A DNA stretch of 14,636 nucleotides from Verrucomicrobiales bacterium (GTDB lineage Bacteria > Verrucomicrobiota > Verrucomicrobiae > Limisphaerales > UBA1100). The DNA is taken from the NCBI GenBank assembly GCA_002721895.1, contig PBLV01000008.1, positions 1-14,636 of the forward strand, given 5' to 3'. The position numbers and the translations under genes are program-made. The notes under the pieces were generated by a model. The model saw only the letters and a list, made by a program, of their open reading frames with translations, was not told the origin of the DNA and did no database searches. Positions 1 through 13,371 of this stretch are shown here, one piece after another. Within the stretch, counting starts at the first letter, position 1. Each line of letters starts with the position of its first letter.

Positions 1-913
1 ACCAAATCGCACCGCGAATGGCGTACGGCACAACCGGTGCGATCTTGCCGTTAAAAAACTGCGACGGTCCACGCCACATGCCGGCGATGCCCGGCAGCTT
101 GGGCCGCGCCGGGACGCGGCCGCCCAGCTCCATCGCTTTACCGGCAGCGTCCTGCCACGATTTCAGTTCCCCGTAATACCTCTCGTAGGATTTGCGTCCC
201 TGCGCAGTGAGCGGATCGGCATCATGAATGAGGTCCTTATCACCATTGAGTTTCGGGTGCGCTTCAATCGCTTCGCGTTGGGTAAAAGCTTCAATACGTG
301 TATTACTATGGGCACTAAGGAGAATACCAATGGGCACATCCAGCTCTTTGTACAATTCATGCGCAAAGGAAAGTGACAGAGCGGAGAACCCGCTCGCTGC
401 ATTGGCCTTTTTCCAGCCTTCATCGGAGGTGGCGCGCTTCTGGGGATAGAGGGCTGAGACGGTGTTGATATTGATCTCGCGAATGAGCACTTCTTCCTTC
501 GCCGAGGCGAGATCGCGCGCGAGTTGATTGCACATGCTCTTGCCAGCCGTCCACACCATGTTCGATTGGCCGGAGGAAAACCACACCTCGCCGACCAACA
601 CGCCCTTGAGGGTGATCGCCTCACCGCGGCTGTTCTTCACGACCAAGTTGCGTTCGGTGCGCGAGACTTTCAGCGGATTGAGCTTCACCATCCAGTCACC
701 GTGCTTGTCCGCGATGGCGGTCTTCGTTTGACCGGCAAACTGCACTGTCACCTTGGTGCCCGGTCGGTCAAATCCCCAAACCGGCACGGCCGACTCCCGT
801 TGCAGGATCGCGTTATCGGTAAATGGCGCCGCCAATGCCAGTTGTTGCTCCGCGGCCTTCAAGCCGGGGATCAGGGATAATGCAAGGAGGATGGGGGCGA
901 ATATTCTGCTCAT
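1..913 (-). CDS. SASA-family (sialate O-acetylesterase-like) esterase, C-terminus beyond the window
   Basis: This gene is open through the left edge, so only the first 304 residues are visible. Residues 1-21 form a signal peptide (MSRIFAPILLALSLIPGLKA, cut near AEQQ). An N-terminal beta-sandwich follows, with the family's AAPFTDNAILQR and VPVWG motifs, and then the SGNH-hydrolase block SGQSNM at residues 114-119, making Ser117 the predicted nucleophile. The visible part ends in AIRGAIW, just where the family's W-x-Q-G block begins, so the catalytic His segment lies outside the window. Members remove O-acetyl groups from sialic acid or other acetylated glycans; the true substrate here is unknown. 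The start at 913 lies two bases after the stop of the preceding gene (TAACCATG), which suggests translational coupling. It is clearly paralogous to the first module of the 4544-7489 gene, sharing motifs such as FAGQTKTA and VLVGEVW. Confidence 0.9.
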   Translation of the reverse strand, partial: MSRIFAPILLALSLIPGLKAAEQQLALAAPFTDNAILQRESAVPVWGFDRPGTKVTVQFAGQTKTAIADKHGDWMVKLNPLKVSRTERNLVVKNSRGEAITLKGVLVGEVWFSSGQSNMVWTAGKSMCNQLARDLASAKEEVLIREININTVSALYPQKRATSDEGWKKANAASGFSALSLSFAHELYKELDVPIGILLSAHSNTRIEAFTQREAIEAHPKLNGDKDLIHDADPLTAQGRKSYERYYGELKSWQDAAGKAMELGGRVPARPKLPGIAGMWRGPSQFFNGKIAPVVPYAIRGAIW

Positions 914-915
914 GG

Positions 916-3900
916 TTATTGCTGTGACAGGACCAACAGTTTGGGTTTCCAATCAGGCTTGTGGCGGGTGCTGTAGCCGCCGGCCTCGACAAACAAATAA
1001 AGCGACCCGGCCAAGGTCTTGGGCGTGATCTTCAAGGCTTGGTAACGGTTTAAATCCATCAGTATATCTGCCGACCAAATCCAGGTTGTGTCGTCGGTGC
1101 TGCCATCCTCCTTGAAGGTGATGGCATCAAACAACGGGTTGCGGGCGCGGCCGAATTTCTTGGCCGGATCGAATTCCTCCATCGCCGCGACCTGGGTAAT
1201 CACTTTCCAGTTCCCGAGAATTTCCGGGTTGGCGACGAACTGCCCGTCCCACCGGAACTTGCGCGCCAAAGCGGATTTCTCCCGATCCTCCGGATCCTGC
1301 GCATCCTGCCACTCAGCAGAAAGCATGGGCACGATGGCGGCGGACTTTAGCAAAAGATCATCGCCCATGGGCGGGAGTTTTTGTTCTTCAATGTGCAGGC
1401 TGAACTTGCCTTGGGGCACTTTCGAGTTGGGCTTCACCTTATACTTGTCGTTGAAACGAAGAAAGGTGATGGCAGCGAGTGTTATTTCGCCGCTGCGAAA
1501 GTCATCCAGAAATTCCTTGGTAAGGTAAGCGCCCTTGGGCAGCCCGCCAGAGCCGCGACCGTTGCAGGTCTTGGCCTCGACGAGCGGCTTGCCGTTAACG
1601 TAAATCAAATGTCCGCCGCCGGAGCCCACGTGGTTGCCGTCATTGATTCGCAGCCGATACCGGTGCCCCGCCTTAAGCGGCGACACCTTGAACGTGCCGC
1701 GTAGGAGGAGCACTTCCTTCTCCCAAAAAGAGCGAATCTTCGTGGCGCCGTAACAACCGGGGCCCGTGCAACCCGCGCCGCACTTGTGGACAGGTCCAGT
1801 GGGAAGCTTGCCTTTGTAATGACCAAAGGGGCTCCTGCCGCGTTTCCACAAGGGGGAGGTGTTCTCGGGTGCAAACCAATTCTCCAAACCTTCGGGTGGT
1901 GTCACCTTGCGGTAGCGGGTGACGAGCTGATCGAACGGCACTTGCTCCGCTGCGATGGGGTCGAAGCTGTGGTAGGACCACTCCGCCTCGCGCAGATCCA
2001 TGAACATTTTCCAGTCGTAATCCTTGGCACCAGCACGATCGTAGAGGGCAACGAGGCCATCAATAGAATCCCGATTGCCCCCGGGATAGCCCGACTGGAT
2101 CTCGGCCTTTGCCAGTTCGGATAAACGCGCGCGGTTGCGCCCAACGTACTCGGGAATCAATTCATCTGTGATAATCGGATGAATCGCCTTTTTTAAAGTG
2201 GGCCCAAAGCGGCTGGAGTCGGCATTCAGAAAGAACTGTTTGTAAGGAAGAATTTCCTTGGGCTTGCGCTGACGGGCGACTGCGTAAAGTACATCCAAAC
2301 CGCCGGGAACCTCAGCCAGAGAGGAGGCAATGCCCTCGAGATGAAACTCAAAAGTCGAGGTGGTGTTCAGCCCCCCCGGAGCGGTCTTGCTTCCTGCGTA
2401 GCCAGTGAAAGTTTCCTTTAGAGTTTCGGTGGCCAGTTTTTGCACTTCCGGGCCGGCCGCCTTAAGCTTGGCGCGAATGCCGCCGGTGAGGCCTCGGGTG
2501 ATGGACACACGCTGGTTGTTGCGGACCAGATCGCCAATGGCCGGCAACACGCGCCTGTAGCAACGCTCGTCAGCCACCACTGGCGTCAAGGCGGTGAGCG
2601 CGGCGTTCTTCAGCCAATCCTCCTCATGCTTGAGGTACGGAAGCAATGTATCGACGAGTGGCAACACTTGTTCCGCCGAGCCGCGGCCGATTACCTGCAG
2701 AGCGGCGTCCTTGACCCACCACGATTCGGCTGGGTTCTTCACCGACTTGACTGCCAGTCCGAAGATTTCCGGATTGATCACGTTTGGTTTGCCAAGCAAG
2801 GCGCCGAACATGGCCCGGCGCACGCGTGCGTCCTTGTGTTGCAAAAACTCCATCACCAGATTCATGCGCACCTTGCCGCCGGCCGATTTCCAGCCGATGT
2901 AGCCGCTGTTGATTCCCAGCGCCTTGTAAGCGGCGATGTGGCGGATGCTGTGCTCCTGATGATGAACGTAACGGCGAATCTCATCGTCGGTGGGTTGCGT
3001 CGCGCCATGGAAGCGGCGAAGAAACGCCATGGAGGAATCCTCAGCCAAGGTCTCGGCGGAAAGATCCTGCTGCTTGCCGTCCTTAGCCCGCACGGCTTCG
3101 AAAGAGAGAAACGCATTATCCGCCTCCGTGCCCCAGAGTTGCTTTGGCAGTTGGTAGGGCTTGGAGAACTTGGTGCGAGGAGCGCCGGCGATGCGGAGGT
3201 TTTTGCGCGGTAACGTGTAGGCCAGCGGATAGGCCACTCCCCATTGCTCCTTGTCGTAGCCCGCGCCACCAAGAATACCGAACGAACCGTCGAAACGGCG
3301 CGAGAGGTCGTAGTGCCACCTTCGATTGTCCATGAAATCGCGGTACTGCTTGGGTCGCTTCTCGCGCATTAGGCTCATGGCCGCGCTTCGCCAAATTTCG
3401 CCAATGCCGCCGCCGGTGTGGCCGTGCAACATGAAACTGGTCGTGTAAAAACTCTGAATCGCACACACATCGCGTGCCTTGGCGTAGAGCGAGTTTTCAC
3501 CATCGGGCGTCAACGCGGCGGCCGCCGCCATGGCAAAGGCGAGCTTGCCGTTCTTGCCGTTGTCCACGAAGCCGTTCTCAGGGCGGTTGTCCCCGTAAGG
3601 ATTGCCGCCACGGCCGGCGTACCGATAGAAATGCCGCAGGGAGCGCAGGAGTAGACGATCCGATACTTCGGCTCCGCACTCCTTGGCCAGCATGAGAAAG
3701 GTGACAACGTGCGTGCCCGCTGCGTTGAGGTGGCCGTTGCCGTAGGACGTGAGCGCCGAACCGCGACCTGCCCAGGCATCGTTGTGCTGGGTTTGGTCGG
3801 CGTTCTTCACCCAATCCTGAATGTTCTCAAGAATCTTGGGATCGCCCGTGCGAAGGTAGCACTCGGCCAACGGAATGCCGCCGTAACCGATGTACCACGG

Positions 3901-4509
3901 ATAACGGTGCGGCTTCACGTTGCGCGCCCATTGGCGAACCACTTCGAGATCCTTATCCTCACCCGTGGAAAGCAGGAACAACATGCCGATGCCCGCGAGC
4001 CCTTTCTGTGCGTCGGGCTGCGAAAGATAATCGGCGACTTGCCGCACGATCTTGTCAGACTTCGGGCAGTTCAGCGGCCACGTTTTGCTATAGGCACCCA
4101 GCACGGGCACCTTGACCGTGACCGGCTCGACCTCGCCGCGAATGACGAACTTCAGCGCCCCGTCCTTGGCCTCCGCCTCGGCGAGGATGTTACCTAGCTG
4201 GATGCGGGGGTCGATGTCGGCAAGCTTCTGACCGTTGATGGACTCAATGATTTGCCCGGCCTTCAGTTTACCGGTCGCGGCGGCAGGCGATCCTTCCTCG
4301 ATGTGGGAGATGCGCATCGTGAAGGCCGGCTGAAGCAGGTCAATCCCCATGCCAACGGGGCCGAAGCGCTTAATGTTTTGCAGCGATTTCTTGGCGTCCG
4401 GTCGCGTGGAAAAAATGCCGTGCGGTTGCTTGTAATACTTATCCGCACCCGCGAGCGAAAATCCGCCAATCAGAGCGGCAATCAGAGTGAGTATTTTTTG
4501 GGCAGTCAT
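916..4509 (-). CDS. Secreted PDZ / DUF6288-type / HEAT-repeat multidomain protein
   Basis: This 1197-residue exported protein has no known reaction. A signal peptide covers residues 1-21 (cut near LAGA/DK). Residues about 50-145 look like a PDZ domain, with a GPVGMGIDL carboxylate-loop-like segment and a GSPAAATGKLKAGQIIESING core. Residues about 150-445 are helical and rich in W/Y/G-x-G motifs (YPWYIGYGGIPLAECYLRTG, HGHTGGGIGEIW), matching what I remember of DUF6288 and resembling an alpha/alpha toroid. Residues about 510-700 carry HEAT-like helical pairs (FLQHKDARVRRAMFGALLGK). Residues about 905-1045 contain a Cys cluster (C910, C914, C919) followed by a beta-rich, possibly sugar-binding segment with a GNHVGSGGGHLIYVNGK motif. 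The gene starts 34 bases after the 981-residue esterase and ends 2 bases before the next esterase, so it is inside the operon. I infer a role on an extracellular glycan or a scaffold, not a demonstrated enzyme. Confidence 0.88.
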   Translation of the reverse strand: MTAQKILTLIAALIGGFSLAGADKYYKQPHGIFSTRPDAKKSLQNIKRFGPVGMGIDLLQPAFTMRISHIEEGSPAAATGKLKAGQIIESINGQKLADIDPRIQLGNILAEAEAKDGALKFVIRGEVEPVTVKVPVLGAYSKTWPLNCPKSDKIVRQVADYLSQPDAQKGLAGIGMLFLLSTGEDKDLEVVRQWARNVKPHRYPWYIGYGGIPLAECYLRTGDPKILENIQDWVKNADQTQHNDAWAGRGSALTSYGNGHLNAAGTHVVTFLMLAKECGAEVSDRLLLRSLRHFYRYAGRGGNPYGDNRPENGFVDNGKNGKLAFAMAAAAALTPDGENSLYAKARDVCAIQSFYTTSFMLHGHTGGGIGEIWRSAAMSLMREKRPKQYRDFMDNRRWHYDLSRRFDGSFGILGGAGYDKEQWGVAYPLAYTLPRKNLRIAGAPRTKFSKPYQLPKQLWGTEADNAFLSFEAVRAKDGKQQDLSAETLAEDSSMAFLRRFHGATQPTDDEIRRYVHHQEHSIRHIAAYKALGINSGYIGWKSAGGKVRMNLVMEFLQHKDARVRRAMFGALLGKPNVINPEIFGLAVKSVKNPAESWWVKDAALQVIGRGSAEQVLPLVDTLLPYLKHEEDWLKNAALTALTPVVADERCYRRVLPAIGDLVRNNQRVSITRGLTGGIRAKLKAAGPEVQKLATETLKETFTGYAGSKTAPGGLNTTSTFEFHLEGIASSLAEVPGGLDVLYAVARQRKPKEILPYKQFFLNADSSRFGPTLKKAIHPIITDELIPEYVGRNRARLSELAKAEIQSGYPGGNRDSIDGLVALYDRAGAKDYDWKMFMDLREAEWSYHSFDPIAAEQVPFDQLVTRYRKVTPPEGLENWFAPENTSPLWKRGRSPFGHYKGKLPTGPVHKCGAGCTGPGCYGATKIRSFWEKEVLLLRGTFKVSPLKAGHRYRLRINDGNHVGSGGGHLIYVNGKPLVEAKTCNGRGSGGLPKGAYLTKEFLDDFRSGEITLAAITFLRFNDKYKVKPNSKVPQGKFSLHIEEQKLPPMGDDLLLKSAAIVPMLSAEWQDAQDPEDREKSALARKFRWDGQFVANPEILGNWKVITQVAAMEEFDPAKKFGRARNPLFDAITFKEDGSTDDTTWIWSADILMDLNRYQALKITPKTLAGSLYLFVEAGGYSTRHKPDWKPKLLVLSQQ

Positions 4510-4543
4510 TTGCTATAGAAAAGATTATCGATAAACCACAAAT

Positions 4544-7489
4544 CTATTTCAAGGCATCGAGCAGGTTTGAGACCTCCGTCCAGTCGCGGGTCGGAATAGC
4601 CGTGCTCCGGCCGCGGATACCTTTCGGTTGGGTAATCTTGGGGGCGAGGGATTTGTCGGGCAAAGTGTAGAGGAAGTGCGGGTCTTTGCCGCCGAAGTGT
4701 TTCTTCCAGGAATTGGCGAGGGTGGTCATTTGCTCGCCGTAGCGGGCGCCGCCGTCCTCGGCGAAGGTGGCGGGGCCGGCGAGAAAGAGGATGCCCTTGA
4801 GTTGGGTAGGCGTGAAGGAGTGAACCATCGTGTTGTACACCTCGGAGGCTTGGCTGGTGACGCCGGCGGTCAGCGTCGGGTAGTTGCCCCAGACGAGGCC
4901 GTCGGGGACGGAACGATTAGTGACCATCTTCGGGATGTAATCGTTCCAATAGCTCCGCCAGGCGTCGAGGTACTGGCGGACGTTGGCGGCATAGTGCGAG
5001 TTGCCGGGGCGCACGGCCGCCAGGTCCTTGTAGTCGGCGAAGAGGCTGGGAGCGTCCTTCAGGGCGTTGACGGGAATCCAACTTTTCAAGGTGCTCAAGT
5101 CCTTGGACGGCACGCCGCGGCCCATTGAGGTCATGCCGCTTTTCATGAAGATGACGCCGACGGGGCGCCCTGTCTTGGCGGCGATGAAGTTGCCGAGGGC
5201 GGCGGGCAGGCCGGTGGCGTCCGTCCACACGCAAGCGAACCGGTTCAGCGGCGTGCGCGACACACAGACGGTGTAGCGTGAGGGCGTGGGATGGGAAAAG
5301 CGCTTGGCCTTGCGGGTCATCATGCGGACAGGGGCCTGCACCTCGACGTCCGGCAGCTCCTCGAAGTTGCCCGGATGCGAGGCGACGAACCAGACGTCGC
5401 CCACCACGATGTTGCGGCAGATGCGTTCGTGCGCCAACTCGCCGTCGATGAAAAAGCGAACGGTCAAGGTCTTAGGTTCGGCGCTGGCCTTCATGGCCGG
5501 CACGGTCACGCGCCACTCCTTGGCAGCACCGGGGTAGCGGCTGTCACCCGGCGCGATTTCGTAAATGTGCGGTGAGCCGGCCTTGACGGGAATCCGCTTC
5601 TTGATGCCCGCGAAGCTGAACTCCACGACCGCCTCACCCTCGGGTTCCACCCCGTAGTCGTGCAGAACCGAGCCCCAGAAGGTAATCGGCTGGTCGGCCT
5701 GAAGAACGGCGTTCTCCCGGAACTGCGTACTGAGGAGCGGCATCTTACGCCACTCGTAGAGCAAGCCTTCCGAACCCGCCGCTGGCACAACGCCCGCCAC
5801 CTTCAGCTTTTCCTCGGGCCACGACTCCGCGGTGACGCGCTTTTGGTCGTAGTAGATGAACGGCGCCATCGGCAGGAGCGCCCGGTTGTAGAGGTTGGGC
5901 TGGAAGCCGATGCCGCCCGTGCCGTAGGAAACGCCGCGCGGCTGCTTCACTCCCGGCGCGTGGAGCACGACCGTTTCCCCGTTCAGCTTCACAGAGGCCC
6001 GGTGCCAGACGCGGTCGGCGCCGGTAAGGTAAAAACCTTTCACTTGGTTCTCACCGTCGGGGATGACCTTGGGATCGGCGAAGCCGGTGGCGTCCTTGTT
6101 GCGGCGGTCGGTGTTGTAGGCGGTCGAGCCGACCACCAAGCCACCTTCGGCCTGATCGAACTTCACAATGAGCCGGTCGCCGCGGACTTCGTAGTCCTTA
6201 AAGGACGGGCCGTCGGCCACGAGTTCCTTTTGCCCGTACTGGTTCTTGAGCGCGTGCAAGGCCAGTCGTTGCCCGGGCACAGTCTTGCTGGTGTAGTGGA
6301 TGCCGCCGGTGACGTCGATTTGGCTGGCCATTCCGGTATGGGGAATGTCGCGGGCCAGCCAGGTGCCAAGCCGCATGTCCACGACCCCGCCGATGCGCGG
6401 GCTGTGGTTCCATTCCCCTTTCTGGCCTGGGCAATAGAACTGGTGGAAGTACACGGGCAGCTCCGGCTTGTCCCAAACCAGGCGCCAGCCCCGCACGAGG
6501 TTGTGGAGGTTGTGGTAGTACGGCAGGCCCTCGCCCATGTTGGCGTAGCCCTGGTTCCAGATGCCGCCTCGGATGGCGTAGGGCACGACGGGATTGAGCC
6601 GGCCGTTGAACAGCCAGGAAGCGTCGCGGTTGCCGCTCAGGTTGCCGGGCGTCCTCGTGGAAATCGGTTGGGGGGCCTTGCCTTCGGCGACCCGCTCGGC
6701 GTTCTCCCGGAGCGTGGCCTCGTTGCCTTCGTAGAAACGCGTCCACACCGCCTTGTGCTCGGGCGTGGTGGGGTCGGTCTCCAGAATCTTCCTGTAGATG
6801 GCCTGTGTGTAGGCGTCCTTTGCGTCGCGGAAACCCTCGCGCGGCACCCAGGCCTGAATGGCCGTCTGGCTAAACGAACAGTTCAGGATGCCGATGGGCA
6901 CGCCCAGTTCCTTGTGGAGCTTGTGGGCGAAGGCGAAGGCAATGGCGCTATAATCGGCGTAGTTGCCATCCTTCCAGGTGCCATCGGCTTTCTCGATGGG
7001 ATGAAGCATCGCCATCACGCTGGTCACCTCGAACTCCCGGATGGGCGCGGGCATGTCCCCTATTTCCTCGGTGAACGCCTGCGCCAGTTTCATGGTGGAG
7101 CTCTTGTTCACCTTCCACTGCATGTTGGACTGCCCCGAAGCCAGCCATACCTCGCCCACCAACACGTTCCGGAGCGTGACGCTCCCGCCCGCGCTCTCCG
7201 ACACCTTCAGTTCGGCGGGCTCCGCGCTGGCCTTCAACGGGTCGAGGGCCAGCATCCATTTGCCGGACTTGCCCGCCACCGCCGTCTTCGTCTGACCGGC
7301 GAACTCCACCGTGACCTTCGTCCCCGGCTCGCTCCAGCCCCAGACCGGCGCCTTCATGCCGCGCTGGAGAACGGCATGGTCCCGGAACGGCGCGCCCAGC
7401 CGGATAGCGGGGCCGGGCTCCTCCTCGACCGCAAACAGGTCGACGCCGAACGTCAATAGAAGCAAAAGGATTATCGAAAAAAATCTCAT
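4544..7489 (-). CDS. Double-module SASA (sialate O-acetylesterase-like) protein with a degenerate second module
   Basis: This 981-residue exported protein is about twice the usual length of the family. After a signal peptide (residues 1-20), module 1 has a beta-sandwich (APFRDHAVLQR, APVWGW), the nucleophile block SGQSNM with Ser121, an IWNQGYAN block near residue 310 and a histidine block DVTGGIHYTSK (Asp392, His398), so it looks like an intact SGNH esterase. Module 2 begins near residue 580 (LLSTQFRENAVLQADQP) and repeats the layout, but its VVGDVWFVASHPGN block puts Pro706 or Gly707 in place of the Ser. The protein ends at residue 981 with no equivalent of the His block. Module 2 is therefore probably non-catalytic. 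The start overlaps the previous stop as ATGA, implying translational coupling. G+C is the highest in the window (46/60 bases at 5161-5220). The substrate is unknown, since SASA-family proteins act on several acetylated glycans. Confidence 0.92.
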   Translation of the reverse strand: MRFFSIILLLLLTFGVDLFAVEEEPGPAIRLGAPFRDHAVLQRGMKAPVWGWSEPGTKVTVEFAGQTKTAVAGKSGKWMLALDPLKASAEPAELKVSESAGGSVTLRNVLVGEVWLASGQSNMQWKVNKSSTMKLAQAFTEEIGDMPAPIREFEVTSVMAMLHPIEKADGTWKDGNYADYSAIAFAFAHKLHKELGVPIGILNCSFSQTAIQAWVPREGFRDAKDAYTQAIYRKILETDPTTPEHKAVWTRFYEGNEATLRENAERVAEGKAPQPISTRTPGNLSGNRDASWLFNGRLNPVVPYAIRGGIWNQGYANMGEGLPYYHNLHNLVRGWRLVWDKPELPVYFHQFYCPGQKGEWNHSPRIGGVVDMRLGTWLARDIPHTGMASQIDVTGGIHYTSKTVPGQRLALHALKNQYGQKELVADGPSFKDYEVRGDRLIVKFDQAEGGLVVGSTAYNTDRRNKDATGFADPKVIPDGENQVKGFYLTGADRVWHRASVKLNGETVVLHAPGVKQPRGVSYGTGGIGFQPNLYNRALLPMAPFIYYDQKRVTAESWPEEKLKVAGVVPAAGSEGLLYEWRKMPLLSTQFRENAVLQADQPITFWGSVLHDYGVEPEGEAVVEFSFAGIKKRIPVKAGSPHIYEIAPGDSRYPGAAKEWRVTVPAMKASAEPKTLTVRFFIDGELAHERICRNIVVGDVWFVASHPGNFEELPDVEVQAPVRMMTRKAKRFSHPTPSRYTVCVSRTPLNRFACVWTDATGLPAALGNFIAAKTGRPVGVIFMKSGMTSMGRGVPSKDLSTLKSWIPVNALKDAPSLFADYKDLAAVRPGNSHYAANVRQYLDAWRSYWNDYIPKMVTNRSVPDGLVWGNYPTLTAGVTSQASEVYNTMVHSFTPTQLKGILFLAGPATFAEDGGARYGEQMTTLANSWKKHFGGKDPHFLYTLPDKSLAPKITQPKGIRGRSTAIPTRDWTEVSNLLDALK

Positions 7490-8259
7490 CGTTTAACGGG
7501 TTTCTTGATCGGGCGCAGGCGCAGAATTACCGACTGGCCCACTGCGGGCAAGCCCTCGGGATTCACCTCCCAAAACAGCCCATCGTCTTCATGGCCATGA
7601 ATTTCCGGCAGGCAAAGTAATTCATCTCCAAAGGACGAAATGGAAATCACATTACCACTCTGTTCACAAAGATACTGCTTCGGGCCGTTGCCCTTTTTCA
7701 ACAGATGCGAACCGGCGAACAAATAGTCGGCCGAAAAGTTCCGGGGTTTGATTTTGGCCGGTGCCAATCCAGAGATTTTTTTGGGCTGGGCGAAAGCAAT
7801 AAATTTTTGAATGGGATGCTCCTGCAATTTTCCCTCGGCATTCGGAAACACCAATGACACTTGCACACGATCGCCAGCCGGTTTTACGGGAATCCATCGC
7901 ACTCCCTCCGCACCCTGCACCATCCGCGAAGCCGGCGTTCCCGGCCGGGCTCCGAATAATAAAAGCGCCGTGTGGATGTGCACCGGCCGGGCGTCGAGGG
8001 CGACAATCGATTCGTGCTCCTTTGTCCCCTTGGTGCAGGCGACCAGTTCCAGCAGGCCCTTGTGCAGGCACACCGTCGCGTTCACGTCGATCGCCCGTTC
8101 GTCAATGTTGAGCCGGATGCCGGGAAGCTTCAGCTTGCGCAATGCCTCCACGGTGGCTGGGGTTAGCTTCCAGTCAGCCGGGCTTCGCGCCTTGTCTGCG
8201 GCAAACATCCCCACCGCCCCGAGGGTCATCAGAATCAGGACGATCCGAAACCGGTTCAT
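7486..8259 (-). CDS. Secreted YdjY-domain protein
   Basis: This 257-residue protein has a signal peptide at residues 1-20 (cut near MFA/AD). Residues about 47-110 carry the YdjY-domain signature as I remember it from Planctomycetota and Verrucomicrobiota: VCLHKGLLELVACTKGTKEH, then ESIVALDARPVHIHTALLLF and GARPGTP. The rest (FSADYLFAGSHL, ISISSFGDELLCLPEIHG, LFWEVNPEGLPAVGQSV) is also typical of this family. The function of YdjY domains is not established. Cysteines at residues 64, 75, 198 and 216 could form disulfides in the periplasm. The start lies 13 bases after the preceding stop with a weak AGG, and the stop overlaps the next start by four bases. It lies in the middle of the operon between two esterase-containing genes, so it is likely co-expressed with the exported set. 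Confidence 0.85.
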   Translation of the reverse strand: MNRFRIVLILMTLGAVGMFAADKARSPADWKLTPATVEALRKLKLPGIRLNIDERAIDVNATVCLHKGLLELVACTKGTKEHESIVALDARPVHIHTALLLFGARPGTPASRMVQGAEGVRWIPVKPAGDRVQVSLVFPNAEGKLQEHPIQKFIAFAQPKKISGLAPAKIKPRNFSADYLFAGSHLLKKGNGPKQYLCEQSGNVISISSFGDELLCLPEIHGHEDDGLFWEVNPEGLPAVGQSVILRLRPIKKPVKR

Positions 8260-8272
8260 GGTTTACCTAGGC

Positions 8273-10945
8273 CTACTTCAGCGGGGTCAGGGTAAACTTC
8301 TTGATCGCCACCCCTTTCTGCGGCGGGGCATCGCGCCAGAATCGGAGGGTGTTTTCCCCCTTTTGCAACGTGAGCTCCACGAGCTGCGAGTCCTGCCATT
8401 CGCCTTCAGTAAATGGCATGGGCATAGCGACTTCCGATCCGTCATTCGCCGCGACCTTCAACCACTGGTCATAATTTACCGTGACCACTTGAGCACTCAC
8501 CGCGTACTTGCCCGCTTGCGGAGCCGTAATTGTGTATTCAAAGCGGGACTTGGTCGCCTGCTTGGGCCCGGTCGGATCTGTCTTGGGGCTGTTGGCGTAA
8601 TAGTCCTTGTGATACTTGTCGGAGATGCGCTCGTTGACGTTGCCGTAAATGTCATGGAATCCCCACGGGTTCGGTTTCTTTTGGCCCACGGGATGCGACT
8701 TCGCGCCGGCGTTGTCCTTGTACCACGCGTATTCCCCGATCTTGGAAGGATCATCGCCGAAGAACCATTTGGTGGAACGCCCCGCGCGGCTGGCGAATTC
8801 CCATTCCGCCTCGGTGGGCAGCCGGGCCTCCACGTTGGCAATCTCACTGAGCCGAATGCAGAACTGACGGGCATCGGGTTCTGAAACATTGTCGACCGGA
8901 TAATTCGCCCCCTTGGTGGACCGGCTCGGGTTCGCGCCCATGGCCGCCTCAAATTGAGCCTGTGTCACCTCGTACTTGCCGAGGTAAAATCCCTGGGTGA
9001 GTTCCACGCCATGTTTGGGCAATTCCACACAAGCGAAACGGCTCTCCTTTTCGTTCTCACCGCCCATCATAAACTTGCCCGGTTTCACATAGATAAACTC
9101 CATCGTCACCCCGTCCCCAAGATCAAGCTTCAGCTCCTTTGTCGGCGCCTTGCCCGGGGCCGGCGTGATGGCCGCGCGCAGGCCCCAATTTTCGTACCGA
9201 CCATACCCCGCGCTGAGCATGCGGCTGCCGGAAGTGCACGCATCCGGCATGCCCTTCCACGTGCCGCCACGCATGATCGTGAGCCCTTCCGGCGCGAAAC
9301 GTGGCAGAAAAATCTGCATCCCTCCGTCAAAGCTTTTCATGGCCAAAATTTCCCGCGCATTACCGGAAGTTTGTGTGTAAGCCGCGCCGGGAATCGAGAT
9401 GACCCCGTTTTTGCTGTAAGTGATTTGCTTGTGTTTCGGATCAACCGGCGCAGCGATCACTTGTTGCGCGATGGTGGGTTTGTTGGATTCGCCGAGTTCC
9501 GCTCCCAAGGCATCGAGTGTGGCCACCTTCAACTTGGTGATGATTTCGCGCTGGGTCCCGAGGGCCATGCCGTTCCAAAACTTGGGCTTCAACTGAACCA
9601 GACTGTTGAATCTCAGCGATGGATCGTGATCGCCATGAATCCGTTTCTCGCCGAACACATCGCCGATCCATTGCGCCCGCTTCACCATCAGAAACGCTTC
9701 CTCATCATTACGCGCCTTGGAGCTGGCGAGAAAATCCACGTCCTTGTGATAACGCGTTGCAGTCCAGCCCGATCCCCAGCCCGGCCCCAGGTTGACGCAC
9801 CAACCGCCGGGCGTCCAACGGGCGAGCGCGCCGTGCCCACGGCTCGGCCGCGCCGTGGTCGGCACGCCGAATGAACGCAGGATGAACCGGCCAAAAAAAG
9901 CGCGGCGACCGCAGATACCGCCGTTCATGATGATGTTCTGATACTTTTGCAATTCGTCCCGGTCATACTTCACGTCGCCCGAACCGTACTTCACCTCCGA
10001 GCTTACGATACCCACGTACCGCCAACCAAAGTTGGTTTCGTAAATGTGATCGGGCCGGAAGTTCCGAAGTGTTTGCCGGCCCCACGCCAGCACCTCATCC
10101 GGCTCATCTCCATTCACCACCATGCGCAGGCTCCACACACTGAGGTTCTTAAAGGTCGGATCCAACTCACCGGCAAGATAAGCGTTTTCATAATGCAGGT
10201 AGCGCTTGATGGGGTCGATGGTCGCCGATGCCTTCGTCTGTGCCTTGGGGTTGGTCTGCACCATGGGCACGGCATGCTCCAAGGCAATGGCCAATGCCAA
10301 CCGCTCGAGCACCCCTTCGGCGGACCGGCTGCTGGTCTGGCGGATCGCCGCATAGATTTTCATGGCCTCTCCAAAACGGGCCGGACCAAAACCGCGGCCG
10401 ATGCGCTTGGCCTTGGCACCGTCCGCCACCAGCATCCGCTTCATCAGCTGAGCATCCGCCAACAACCGCTCAACCAGCGCCTCGTGTTCCTTATTTTGCT
10501 GGGCAAATTCCGCCAAACCACGCGGGGTGGCATCCAGCAACACAACATATTTCACCAACAACCCGTCCAGCCGATCGTTGGTCAGGTAAGGCGCGAACTT
10601 CTCTTGCTGCGTCGGCCCCGCTCCCTTCGGAGCCGGTTTTTTTCCGCCATCCAACAATTCGTCCAGCGAACGGTCTCCGCCCTTTTTGTCGCCCCCAAGC
10701 TTGATGTCCGGAAAATTGAACTGCTGCTTCCGGGCCTCATCGGTTGTCGGAGCCGCTACATAAGGAATCCTTTTGATTAACTGCAACCGCAGCTCCTCGA
10801 GTTCCGTGGTATAGCGAGCCTCAAGGCGTCGCCCCTCACCGGTTAAGGCAATTCCCTCAGCCGCCTTAGGGGCAGCCAATAAGAATGATTGAACGCCCAG
10901 ACACAGGGCAATCCACCCGTGGAACAAAGAGGCACTCTTTTTCAT
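8273..10945 (-). CDS. Transglutaminase-like protein with a permuted SUMF1/FGE-like domain nested in a beta-sandwich
   Basis: This is an 890-residue exported protein (signal peptide about residues 1-25). Residues about 290-440 look like a transglutaminase-like cysteine peptidase fold: GGICGRRAFFGRF (Cys345), RGHGALARW (His371) and GWCVNLGPGW, where Asn385 lies near the usual Asp. Residues about 511-550 (ISIPGAAYTQTSGN) and 802-890 (FEYTITAPQAGKYAVSAQVV, KKFTLTPLK) look like the two halves of one carbohydrate-binding-like beta-sandwich. Between them are SUMF1/FGE pieces in reversed order: the tail motif RGGTWKGMPDAC...WGLRAA (559-594), then the body MEFIYVKPGKFMMGG...RLPTEAEWEFASRAG...YGNVNERISD (615-776). 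In an FGE, two cysteines follow the RGG motif; here the first is Gly565 and only Cys570 remains, so formylglycine-generating activity is unlikely. The start is supported by TAAGGA, which overlaps the previous stop and lies 7 bases before the ATG. Confidence 0.9.
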   Translation of the reverse strand: MKKSASLFHGWIALCLGVQSFLLAAPKAAEGIALTGEGRRLEARYTTELEELRLQLIKRIPYVAAPTTDEARKQQFNFPDIKLGGDKKGGDRSLDELLDGGKKPAPKGAGPTQQEKFAPYLTNDRLDGLLVKYVVLLDATPRGLAEFAQQNKEHEALVERLLADAQLMKRMLVADGAKAKRIGRGFGPARFGEAMKIYAAIRQTSSRSAEGVLERLALAIALEHAVPMVQTNPKAQTKASATIDPIKRYLHYENAYLAGELDPTFKNLSVWSLRMVVNGDEPDEVLAWGRQTLRNFRPDHIYETNFGWRYVGIVSSEVKYGSGDVKYDRDELQKYQNIIMNGGICGRRAFFGRFILRSFGVPTTARPSRGHGALARWTPGGWCVNLGPGWGSGWTATRYHKDVDFLASSKARNDEEAFLMVKRAQWIGDVFGEKRIHGDHDPSLRFNSLVQLKPKFWNGMALGTQREIITKLKVATLDALGAELGESNKPTIAQQVIAAPVDPKHKQITYSKNGVISIPGAAYTQTSGNAREILAMKSFDGGMQIFLPRFAPEGLTIMRGGTWKGMPDACTSGSRMLSAGYGRYENWGLRAAITPAPGKAPTKELKLDLGDGVTMEFIYVKPGKFMMGGENEKESRFACVELPKHGVELTQGFYLGKYEVTQAQFEAAMGANPSRSTKGANYPVDNVSEPDARQFCIRLSEIANVEARLPTEAEWEFASRAGRSTKWFFGDDPSKIGEYAWYKDNAGAKSHPVGQKKPNPWGFHDIYGNVNERISDKYHKDYYANSPKTDPTGPKQATKSRFEYTITAPQAGKYAVSAQVVTVNYDQWLKVAANDGSEVAMPMPFTEGEWQDSQLVELTLQKGENTLRFWRDAPPQKGVAIKKFTLTPLK

Positions 10946-10955
10946 AGTCTATTCC

Positions 10956-12023
10956 TTATTTGGATTTTAACAACTCCACCATTGCCTTGCCCATGCCGAG
11001 CCCAACGTTCATGTAGGTCTTGGCATTGCCGCTGTAATGACCATTAGAGGCACCACCCATTGAAAGCGGATGAGTATACACAACGGCTGCCTCACCTTTG
11101 TGTGCCGCCCCGAAGGCAAATTTGCCTTCAATGATCAGCTTCTCGTTACCCTTAGCCTTATCCTTATCAGTCTGGCCGAGGGTGGCTACCACCATCTTGG
11201 CCTTCGGCGCATTGAACTCCTTGCGGAGCGCCTTGAAAAGTTGCACCAGATTCTTGCCATACATGGCCGCGTGCGCTGCGTTGTAGCGATCCTTGTCGCC
11301 TTGCCACCAGAGGAAACCGGCTACTTCGTATCCTTTGCCACTGGGGTAATGCTTGTCGAGATCCTTGAGCACCGCCTTCGCCCGGGCCACATCGCCGATG
11401 TATTGCAGCCCGGCGTGCCAGTTGTGTTTGGGCGGCTCGGGCACAGCGCCCTTGGTCCAGCTGGGGTGCCGCACCTCATCCTTGAAGGCTGGGGTCACGA
11501 GCGTCACCTTTTTGCCTGCCCGATCGGTGGTTTCCACCTCATGCCGTGGACTGCCCGGAGGCAGGAGATCCCAACCCAGCGAACGGTTGCCAATGGAGCT
11601 TTTGAGAATCAGAACCGGCTCGTCCAACGCGTTGCCAAGGTGATGACCGATACCGATCTCGATGCCGATTTTACCGCCCGAAACCGTCAGCCAATCATTT
11701 CGCCGAACACCACCGCCAGGCCCGCCGCTACCCATAGTATGAACGTTGCGCACATCCATGCGCTTGGTCCATTTGCCTGTATCATCCACCATAAAAGGAT
11801 AAAGTTTTTCTTTCTTAACAGCGTGTTCAAGAGTCCCTTCCTTATCCCCTTTTACTCGACCCATCTCCAACGTGTTGGATTGCCCCATAATAATGAACAC
11901 CTTGACCGGCTTACTCATATTCGCAGGCTTCCCGTCGGGATCGGGCAATTCTGCTGACAGAGTCAAAGTTGAAGCAAATGCTGCTACTAAAAGGATTGAT
12001 GTGAATTGAATGGTTTTTTTCAT
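10956..12023 (-). CDS. Compact SASA/CE6-like SGNH esterase, first gene of the operon
   Basis: Starting at the ATG at 12023, the product has 355 residues. It opens with a good signal peptide (MKKTIQFTSILLVAAFASTL, cut near LSA/EL). A GTG 27 bases upstream would add residues before the natural basic n-region, so I prefer the ATG. The hydrolase core starts almost at once: VFIIMGQSN with Ser49 as the nucleophile, IEIGIGHHLG in the middle, GFLWWQGDKD at residues 236-245 and SNGHYSGNA with His329 near the end. This matches single-domain SASA/carbohydrate-esterase-6-like enzymes, which deacetylate glycans such as xylan or sialic acid; the exact substrate cannot be read here. The DxxH position that usually supplies the aspartate is Ser326, which may be normal for this subgroup. 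It lacks the beta-sandwich domain seen in the other two esterases. Ten bases separate it from the next gene. Confidence 0.9.
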   Translation of the reverse strand: MKKTIQFTSILLVAAFASTLTLSAELPDPDGKPANMSKPVKVFIIMGQSNTLEMGRVKGDKEGTLEHAVKKEKLYPFMVDDTGKWTKRMDVRNVHTMGSGGPGGGVRRNDWLTVSGGKIGIEIGIGHHLGNALDEPVLILKSSIGNRSLGWDLLPPGSPRHEVETTDRAGKKVTLVTPAFKDEVRHPSWTKGAVPEPPKHNWHAGLQYIGDVARAKAVLKDLDKHYPSGKGYEVAGFLWWQGDKDRYNAAHAAMYGKNLVQLFKALRKEFNAPKAKMVVATLGQTDKDKAKGNEKLIIEGKFAFGAAHKGEAAVVYTHPLSMGGASNGHYSGNAKTYMNVGLGMGKAMVELLKSK

Positions 12024-12024
12024 G

Positions 12025-12039
12025 GTTAAACTGCTTAAT
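12025..12039. promoter_or_regulatory. Candidate operator copy A
   Basis: The plus strand reads GTTAAACTGCTTAAT. It matches copy B at 13 of 15 positions in the same orientation, with starts 58 bases apart. It begins one base upstream of the ATG of the operon's first gene, so a bound regulator would block leader transcription or translation initiation. AraC/XylR-type regulators commonly bind direct repeats; the assignment to the neighbouring regulator is inferred from position only. Confidence 0.4.
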
Positions 12040-12055
12040 GGGAATATCACATTAA
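12035..12055. repeat. Short inverted repeat TTAATG-N9-CATTAA
   Basis: This is a perfect 6-bp inverted repeat with a 9-base spacer in the leader of the operon, partly overlapping operator copy A. It may be part of a regulatory site or a weak leader hairpin. The arms are AT-rich and short enough to occur by chance. Confidence 0.3.
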
Positions 12056-12069
12056 AGGCCGATTCCCCC

Positions 12070-12099
12070 TTGTTGCCTTCTCGTTGAACGGCTTAATAT
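12070..12099 (+). promoter_or_regulatory. Candidate sigma-70-type promoter for the regulator gene
   Basis: TTGTTG at 12070-12075 and TAATAT at 12094-12099 are separated by 18 bases. This is the best -35/-10 pair I can see reading toward the regulator and would leave a leader of about 90 bases. The -10 box overlaps operator copy B, which would suit autoregulation. I found no equally convincing promoter reading toward the operon. Confidence 0.35.
12083..12097. promoter_or_regulatory. Candidate operator copy B
   Basis: The plus strand reads GTTGAACGGCTTAAT, a direct repeat of copy A (13/15). It covers the first part of the candidate -10 box of the regulator gene. Two copies in a 172-base divergent intergenic region next to an AraC-type gene make a plausible operator pair. 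A weaker 11/15 match occurs at 13472-13486, beyond the regulator gene. Confidence 0.4.
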
Positions 12100-12195
12100 T
12101 TTGTTGGATTGCCCTGCGCTCCTCAATTCATTCTTGCCTTTGTTTTGCGTTTTCTATTCTCTTTTTTGCGACATGCCTATATTTCGGTAATCACG

Positions 12196-13371
12196 ATGAG
12201 TTTGACGCATTCAAATCCCACCAGAGTAGCCATCGCGCTGGAGATGGAATGGGGCTATAAACGGCACTTGGAAACCTACGCTGGGTGCTTGAACTATGCC
12301 TCCGAGGCTGGTTGGGACTGCGTGATCACCCCAAGCTCGAACCACATCTTTAAGTCAAAGAAAGACGAAAAGCCCTTTGACGGTGTAATCGCCCGAGTCA
12401 CAAAATCGATGGCCACCACCGCCGGGAGAAAGAAGGTGCCCATGGTCAATGTTTGGCTGAATTCACCAGCAACCCAAGTGCCCAGTGTGCACGCTGATTT
12501 TGAAGAGTCGGGCAGGATCGCAGCAGAGCATTTGATGAGTCGGGGGTTTCGCCGGTTTGGATATCTAGGCTATGTCCGGGAAATTGAATCGAAACGGCAA
12601 ATCAAGGGATTCAAAGATACCCTTCAGCCCAAGGACTTCGAGTGTTCAATTCATCAATTTGCGCGAACCAGCCTGCATGGTAATGCGAATGCATGGGATG
12701 AATTTAGATCCGGATTATTGAAATGGGTGGCCAGTTGGCGCCCGCCCATCGGCATTTTTGTCGTAAACGACCTATATTGCCGTTATCTGATGGATGCCTG
12801 CCGTTCCGCCGGGCTTAATGTTCCCCATGACTACGCAATTATTGGCACCGCTAACGAGCCGAGTATTTGCAACTCCCCCTACCCTACACTAACCAGCATC
12901 GATATGGGGTTTGAAGAAATTGGCTACCGTGCAGCTGATTTACTCAATAGCTTGGTGAGAGGAAATCAACCGCCAGCAATCTCAGAATTAGTAAAACCCC
13001 AAAAACTTGTCCCGCGGCAATCCACAGACTCCTTTGCCGCAGAAGACCCACTAATATCAAACGCCTTGCGATTTATTGCCGAAAACAGCCACCACCCCTT
13101 GTCAGTGAAAGATGTGGCACTCGCAACCGGAATTAACCGGAGAAGTCTAGAACGCCGTTTCAAACAGTACTCCCCAGAAGGCATCGCCAAGCAAATCGCT
13201 CGGATGCGCATTGAACGCGCCAAACGACTCATCATTGAAACTAAAGGCTCTCTCAAATCCATCGCCATTGAATGCGGCTTCCGCAACAGCGACCACCTAA
13301 ACAAAGCCTTTCTGAGAATCGAGAAACTTACTCCCTCGAAATTTAGAAAATTGAATGGCCAAGCGCGCTAA
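12196..13371 (+). CDS. XylR-type transcriptional regulator (periplasmic-binding-like sensor domain + AraC HTH)
   Basis: From the ATG at 12196 this is a 391-residue cytoplasmic protein. The frame is open back to a TTG at 12109, but that extension is a hydrophobic stretch unrelated to the family, so I chose MSLTHSNPTRVAIALEMEWG. Residues about 10-265 form a LacI/periplasmic-binding-like sugar sensor (HADFEESGRIAAEHLMSRGF, GIFVVNDLYCRYLMDACRSA, YPTLTSIDMGFEEIGYRAAD). Residues about 285-385 are an AraC-family double HTH (LSVKDVALATGINRRSLERR, SLKSIAIECGFRNSDHLNKA, LTPSKFRK). This order, sensor then AraC HTH with no N-terminal LacI HTH, is that of XylR. It is transcribed divergently from the esterase operon and probably senses a sugar released from the operon's substrate. 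The ligand cannot be inferred; calling it xylose would be over-reading. Its G+C is lower than that of the operon. Confidence 0.9.
   Translation: MSLTHSNPTRVAIALEMEWGYKRHLETYAGCLNYASEAGWDCVITPSSNHIFKSKKDEKPFDGVIARVTKSMATTAGRKKVPMVNVWLNSPATQVPSVHADFEESGRIAAEHLMSRGFRRFGYLGYVREIESKRQIKGFKDTLQPKDFECSIHQFARTSLHGNANAWDEFRSGLLKWVASWRPPIGIFVVNDLYCRYLMDACRSAGLNVPHDYAIIGTANEPSICNSPYPTLTSIDMGFEEIGYRAADLLNSLVRGNQPPAISELVKPQKLVPRQSTDSFAAEDPLISNALRFIAENSHHPLSVKDVALATGINRRSLERRFKQYSPEGIAKQIARMRIERAKRLIIETKGSLKSIAIECGFRNSDHLNKAFLRIEKLTPSKFRKLNGQAR

What the first reader, a model, noticed from the sequence alone, without database searches (positions are those of the whole stretch)
8276..9415. SUMF1/FGE-like domain appears circularly permuted and nested inside a beta-sandwich domain
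Seen: residues 559-594 (RGGTWKGMPDAC...WGLRAA) match the C-terminal element of SUMF1/FGE domains, yet they come before residues 615-776, which match the N-terminal and central parts (KPGKFMMGG, RLPTEAEWEFASRAG, YGNVNERISD, ending in YYANSPKTDPTGP). Joining residue ~800 to ~555 would restore a normal-order domain. Likewise residues 511-550 and 802-890 read as two halves of one carbohydrate-binding-like domain; joining them restores it. So the order is sandwich-N, FGE-C, linker (APGKAPTKELKLDLGDG), FGE-N, sandwich-C. Both breakpoints have an Arg-Phe pair (549-550 and 801-802), a possible crossover point. C-type-lectin-like folds have close termini, so a permuted, inserted domain is structurally reasonable. 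I know of no described protein with this layout.
Basis: partly seen in the sequence, partly recalled or inferred. Interest (0 to 1): 0.85.

Follow-up and report, generated by a model that had tools for sequence, protein, structure and literature searches.

The report
Permuted FGE domain nested in CBM
A protein of Verrucomicrobia and Planctomycetes carries one lectin-like domain whose two ends were swapped in order and which was then slipped into a loop of another, sugar-binding-type domain; relatives without the insert and a relative with the normal order were both found, so the steps of this unusual rearrangement can be followed.

The parts
8273..10945 (-). whole gene, 890 aa: N-terminal helices, Cys-His domain, CBM-like sandwich with nested permuted FGE-like domain
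   Evidence: relatives aligning over the whole length
10589..10945 (-). residues 1-119: hydrophobic start (looks like a signal peptide, by eye only) and variable helical region
   Evidence: entropy 1.55 bits
9536..10588 (-). residues 120-470: conserved domain with invariant Cys345 and His371 and mostly Asn385 (transglutaminase/papain-like by motif only, recalled)
   Evidence: no Pfam match to this part in the window protein; no PDB match that names such an enzyme
9296..9415 (-). residues 511-550: N-terminal half of the CBM6/35-like sandwich
9164..9295 (-). residues 551-594: C-terminal element of the FGE-like domain (RGGTW...CTSG.R...NWGLRAA), placed first
9128..9163 (-). residues 595-606: variable linker joining the normal C-terminus to the normal N-terminus
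   Evidence: entropy 1.80 bits, 0 of 12 invariant
8564..9127 (-). residues 607-794: N-terminal and central part of the FGE-like domain, ending in DPTGP
8546..8563 (-). residues 795-800: short joint to the sandwich
8276..8545 (-). residues 801-890: C-terminal half of the CBM6/35-like sandwich
10956..12050 (-). upstream neighbour: SASA-type carbohydrate esterase; a relative lies next to or near the gene in the nested loci looked at and in 6 of 15 plain regions

Best explanation
The C-terminal third is a CBM6/CBM35-type beta-sandwich into one hairpin loop of which a circularly permuted FGE-like (C-type-lectin-like) domain has been inserted. The FGE-like domain was opened at its loop between DPTGP and RGGxW, and its old ends were bridged by a short linker (shown by sequence). 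Opening a domain in a loop leaves its new ends side by side, which suits insertion into a hairpin (inference). The insertion most likely happened once, in an ancestor whose protein was Cys-His domain plus plain sandwich (supported by the tree and empty-site relatives; the sister group has moderate support). Most likely the insert was one out-of-register unit of a tandem FGE array, as proposed for swaposin (inference, not shown). Function (inferred): a secreted Cys-His enzyme of a polysaccharide-use locus whose CBM and FGE-like insert form a composite glycan- or ligand-binding head. The FGE part is most likely not a formylglycine-generating enzyme, because one of the two cysteines of that enzyme (recalled) is missing.
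Against: The AlphaFold2 model of the nested protein has pLDDT under 50 for 550-586, 629-643 and 768-797, so the packing of FGE-C on FGE-N is not shown. The only FGE-type fold in the 50 listed rows (2y3c) is aligned over 601-786, without FGE-C. 10 of 211 relatives gain 10 bits or less. No intermediate (normal-order insert or double FGE inside the sandwich) was seen among 260 listed proteins. The array origin is only compatible: the distance from G[FL]R to PGxF is 33-34 residues in 170 of 175 nested proteins, while 35 clean array distances range from 24 to 96. Only the best 120 of 1751 and of 238 hits were listed, so the rest of the family was not seen. The covariation test corrects for ancestry only by sequence weights and APC. 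No fold or function of the Cys-His part was confirmed.
Confidence: 0.86

Rival explanations
1. Assembly or binning error joined unrelated pieces.
For: The window is a piece of unknown source, and many relatives lie on short contigs.
Against: Same order in 140 of 140 near-full-length relatives listed, in a 2.7-Mb contig (G218:C1), and in L007, whose record title names a SAG isolate.
Confidence: 0.01
2. FGE-C and FGE-N are two unrelated remnants of different FGE domains that do not fold together.
For: The nested model does not place FGE-C with confidence.
Against: Both halves match one normal-order domain at 61-63% identity; FGE-C has 11 of 39 invariant positions and low entropy; covariation with FGE-N is enriched.
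Confidence: 0.06
3. The FGE-like domain is completed between chains: FGE-C of one chain packs on FGE-N of another (domain swap in a dimer). This is a variant of the best explanation, not fully exclusive of it.
For: Not excluded by any search; the single-chain model leaves FGE-C loose.
Against: The stretch from GLR to PGxF, 33-34 residues in 170 of 175 nested proteins, is long enough for packing within one chain (inference); no direct test.
Confidence: 0.1
4. The reverse history: nested is the old form and plain relatives lost the insert.
For: Support for the sister group of the nested clade is moderate (83/87, joint node 80/87), and the outgroup branches are long.
Against: Nested is one clade, and plain forms branch both as its sister and outside it when the Cys-His-only rows are the outgroup, so clean loss would have to repeat.
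Confidence: 0.07

Closest known systems
Swaposin (plant-specific insert of plant aspartic proteinases)
   Same: a circularly permuted domain inserted in an enzyme, with a tandem repeat of the normal domain (prosaposin) as suggested mechanism (PMC3320104, passages seen)
   Different: small helical saposin in a eukaryotic protease; here a domain of about 240 residues in a bacterial CBM-type sandwich, with empty-site and normal-order relatives in hand
Winged helix inserted in methionine aminopeptidase 2 (Peptidase_M24)
   Same: circularly permuted domain inserted in an enzyme domain, linked to substrate recognition (PMC4000134, passages seen)
   Different: different folds; the host there is the catalytic domain, here a binding-type sandwich
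Treponema denticola variable protein TvpA (2y3c)
   Different: normal order; not inside a sandwich
CBM6 / CBM35 modules (2cdp, 5fui, 4qb1)
   Different: these chains of 124-130 residues leave no room for the insert; the window protein itself shows no Pfam CBM match
Tandem FGE arrays (such as P0149, P0188, P0191)
   Same: C-terminal element, linker and next N-terminal element follow each other as in the insert
   Different: whole normal-order domains, no sandwich match

Membership tests
FGE-sulfatase / SUMF1-like domain (PF03781) | profile match above the curated score | tested here: met
   110.2 bits, cut-off 23.3
FGE-sulfatase / SUMF1-like domain (PF03781) | normal N-to-C order of the whole profile in one stretch | tested here: not met
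   native order covers 4-205 of 255; only the re-joined sequence covers 4-254
Formylglycine-generating enzyme (copper oxidase) | two active-site cysteines in the RGGxW...C region (recalled from the known enzyme) | tested here: not met
   at the recalled place of the first Cys stands residue 565: G 61, N 4, E 1, Q 1 of 67; the second, 570, is C in 65 of 67
CBM6/CBM35 | sandwich fold of about 125 residues | tested here: met
CBM6/CBM35 | Pfam match above cut-off | tested here: inconclusive
   none for the window protein or its joined sandwich; relative P0180 reaches CBM_35 29.6 bits, cut-off 28
CBM6/CBM35 | binds a glycan | not testable with these tools
   needs binding assays
Transglutaminase-like / papain-like enzymes | Cys-His-Asp/Asn catalytic residues in order (recalled pattern) | tested here: inconclusive
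   C345 and H371 67 of 67, N385 62 of 67; no Pfam transglutaminase match, no such PDB sequence match, fold not tested alone
Nested circular permutation (swaposin kind) | swapped order relative to homologues | tested here: met
Nested circular permutation (swaposin kind) | insertion inside another domain that exists without it | tested here: met
   plain relatives
Nested circular permutation (swaposin kind) | permuted chain folds to the normal fold | tested here: inconclusive
   nested model poor at 550-586 and 768-797

The most novel reading that the evidence does not exclude
One period of a tandem FGE array, cut out of register (perhaps through an excised DNA circle, which would give exactly one permuted unit), was captured in a hairpin of a CBM sandwich. 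It has been kept across Verrucomicrobiota and Planctomycetota as a composite two-lectin binding head of a family of secreted Cys-His enzymes that neither Pfam nor NCBIfam, as searched here, names. This would be a natural case of nested permutation with empty-site and normal-order relatives both at hand.
Probability: 0.3. Interest if true: 0.75.

Novelty: new variant of a known kind. Interest (0 to 1): 0.62.

Why it matters
I found two cases in print in which a domain is both permuted and inserted in an enzyme (swaposin; MetAP2's winged helix); there may be more. Here the host without the insert, a donor-type domain in normal order and 217 listed nested rows (fragments included) are all in hand. 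So the order of events, the insertion point and the constraint on each piece can be tested directly. It also shows that domain annotation by profile misses the swapped end of the domain: Pfam stops at position 205 of 255.

Tried and rejected
Rejected: assembly error (relatives span both junctions). Rejected: that the sandwich, not the FGE, is the permuted one (plain relatives have the normal sandwich order). Rejected: RF/RF as conserved crossover mark. Rejected: linker length as proof of an array origin. A first count seemed to show arrays peaking at 33 residues, but that set held fragments of nested proteins; after dropping every row with sandwich, Cys-His or NWGLR/NWGFR matches, 35 clean distances from 31 proteins spread from 24 to 96.

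Led nowhere: the search with sandwich halves joined listed only rows with the FGE domain among its best 120 of 238. Viral contigs gave no relative. Plasmids: 239 records matched, 20 listed, none over 80% of the query; two listed single-piece matches that ran through FGE-C and FGE-N (H10, H12) are neighbouring or tandem normal-order FGE domains without sandwich. Loci whose match broke off near the same point (L062, L063, L065) were normal-order FGE. A class-level search found no further form at E 1e-60 (2 of 197 genomes matched, both known). No known fold for the Cys-His part stood out among the 50 listed rows of each fold search, but that part was not searched alone.

Rows left out:'s 66 genomes with a match, the tree took 13 plain loci and the nested L042 and L043, plus four Cys-His-only rows (L045, L046, L048, L050) as outgroup. 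L047, L049, L051-L058 and the second plain copy of G326 (looked at only) were not used. Alignment A1 took 60 of the 148 proteins then listed (a 90% identity filter had kept 79 of the 140 near-full-length ones) plus six locus proteins and the window.

Literature: the searches (listings only) showed no title or abstract start about a permuted SUMF1/FGE domain; searches likewise gave nothing on this layout. One listed paper with both words, PMC8195603, was checked in passages: it names the FGE-type domain and, apart from it, a circularly permuted transglutaminase-like peptidase, not this layout. The library lacks most subscription papers. Other papers seen in passages only: PMC3320104 and PMC4000134.

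Full report
What is there. The gene at 8273-10945 (minus strand, 890 aa) lies in a run of minus-strand genes: SASA esterase (10956-12050), this gene, a 257-aa protein without Pfam match (7486-8259), a second SASA protein (4544-7489), a DUF6288/PDZ protein (916-4509) and a third protein, cut by the window's end, whose SASA match stays just under the curated score (2-952; 23.3 against 24.8 bits). A regulator (Peripla_BP_3 plus AraC-type HTH, 12109-13371) points the other way. This looks like a polysaccharide-use locus (inference). The closest genome match is a Verrucomicrobiales MAG at 93% identity (L001).

Test of the permutation. In native order the Pfam FGE profile is matched at 4-205 of 255 with 110.2 bits in the whole protein and 112.8 bits in residues 500-890. 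With residues 603-800 followed by 551-602 it is matched at 4-254 with 124.4 bits. All eight NCBIfam models listed gain in the same way, for example GldK from 40.2 to 62.4 bits, and so does TvpA in the PDB, from 70.6 to 92.3 bits; these compare the whole protein with the re-joined piece, so part of that gain may come from length. As controls, an HMM from 84 normal-order FGE domains (from 42 database proteins and 18 loci, no nested fragment) was scored against 211 nested proteins. Mean scores: FGE-N alone 255.6 bits, native order 254.4, re-joined 283.6, re-joined with shuffled FGE-C 257.2, FGE-N with the downstream sandwich residues instead 257.9. The gain over native order exceeded 10 bits in 201 of 211 (minimum 1.3). 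Of 250 circular cuts of residues 551-800 the best start at 603-607, at the end of the linker. A database protein with the normal order, P0249, aligns with the re-joined domain in one stretch of 242 columns over equal spans on both sides, 60.3% identical; in native order it splits into two hits of 62.7% (193 columns) and 61.0% (41 columns). So both halves most likely come from one FGE subfamily.

Distribution and history. The first protein search found 1751 relatives, of which the best 120 were listed; the second found 238, best 120 listed. Of 260 different proteins listed over three searches, 217 are the nested family or fragments of it and 43 are normal-order FGE, 42 of them with more than one FGE-N match. 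Of the 148 proteins listed by the first two searches, 140 are at least 790 aa long; 138 show the swapped order by motif and the other two by reading. Source names include Verrucomicrobiota, Planctomycetota, Thermoguttaceae and 'Candidatus Brocadiae'. A tree of 49 rows from the Cys-His part and sandwich-C makes the 31 nested rows one clade (96/99; one change in 94% of 200 bootstrap trees), with six plain rows as sister (83/87; joint node 80/87) and other plain rows outside. It is drawn with a midpoint root, which falls between the four Cys-His-only rows and the rest; the outgroup branches are long, so gain rather than loss is likely but not certain. A SASA relative lies next to or within about 2 kb of the gene in 7 of 7 nested loci from the first genome scan and next to the gene in 6 of 15 plain regions, several of which are clipped by contig ends or by the stretch fetched. 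Of two further nested regions, L101 has one next to the gene on the other strand and L102 only a weak match 1.7 kb away.

Mechanism and function. A domain opened inside a loop has its new ends side by side, which suits insertion in a hairpin; its old ends need a bridge, which is the variable linker (inference). The insert reads as one out-of-register unit of a tandem FGE array; the linker length is compatible with that but not diagnostic. The FGE part lacks the first cysteine of the enzyme pair (residue 565 is Cys in 0 of 67; the pair is recalled knowledge), so it is most likely a binding or structural module; the FGE-type domain shares the C-type lectin fold (PMC8195603, passage). The N-terminal domain has invariant Cys345 and His371 and mostly Asn385, a transglutaminase- or papain-like pattern (recalled), but no profile or PDB sequence supports that name. 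The most likely role is a secreted Cys-His enzyme directed to a glycan by a composite CBM/FGE head (inference; the signal peptide was judged by eye only).

Comparison. A permuted domain inserted in an enzyme is known: swaposin (PMC3320104, passages) and the inserted permuted winged helix of MetAP2 (PMC4000134, passages). No paper on a permuted SUMF1/FGE domain was recognised in the listings. It is a new variant of a known kind, with unusually complete sequence evidence.

Noticed in passing
window 2-13371: Run of minus-strand genes with two SASA esterases and a third just under the Pfam cut-off, a DUF6288/PDZ protein and a 257-aa unknown, and a divergent Peripla_BP_3/AraC-type regulator: looks like a polysaccharide-use locus.
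   Followed up: partly
window 7486-8259: 257-aa protein without Pfam match, 92% identical next to the same gene in L001 and not matched in the other six nested loci.
   Followed up: no
window 10589-10945 and plain relative L033: L033's N-terminal part, with long helices in its model, is 83 residues longer than that of the window protein.
   Followed up: no
L016, L006 and L022 (genome G006): One genome holds two nested paralogues and one plain paralogue.
   Followed up: partly
L017 (genome G007): A single 1150-aa frame with at least three tandem normal-order FGE domains.
   Followed up: no
database protein P0249: Closest normal-order FGE found sits behind a cysteine-rich N-terminus, a proline-rich stretch and weak TPR matches under the cut-offs; source organism not told.
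   Followed up: no
L109 1-4992 (Acaryochloris plasmid): Two adjacent FGE genes beside an RNA-directed DNA polymerase and an avd gene annotated as diversity-generating retroelement protein.
   Followed up: no
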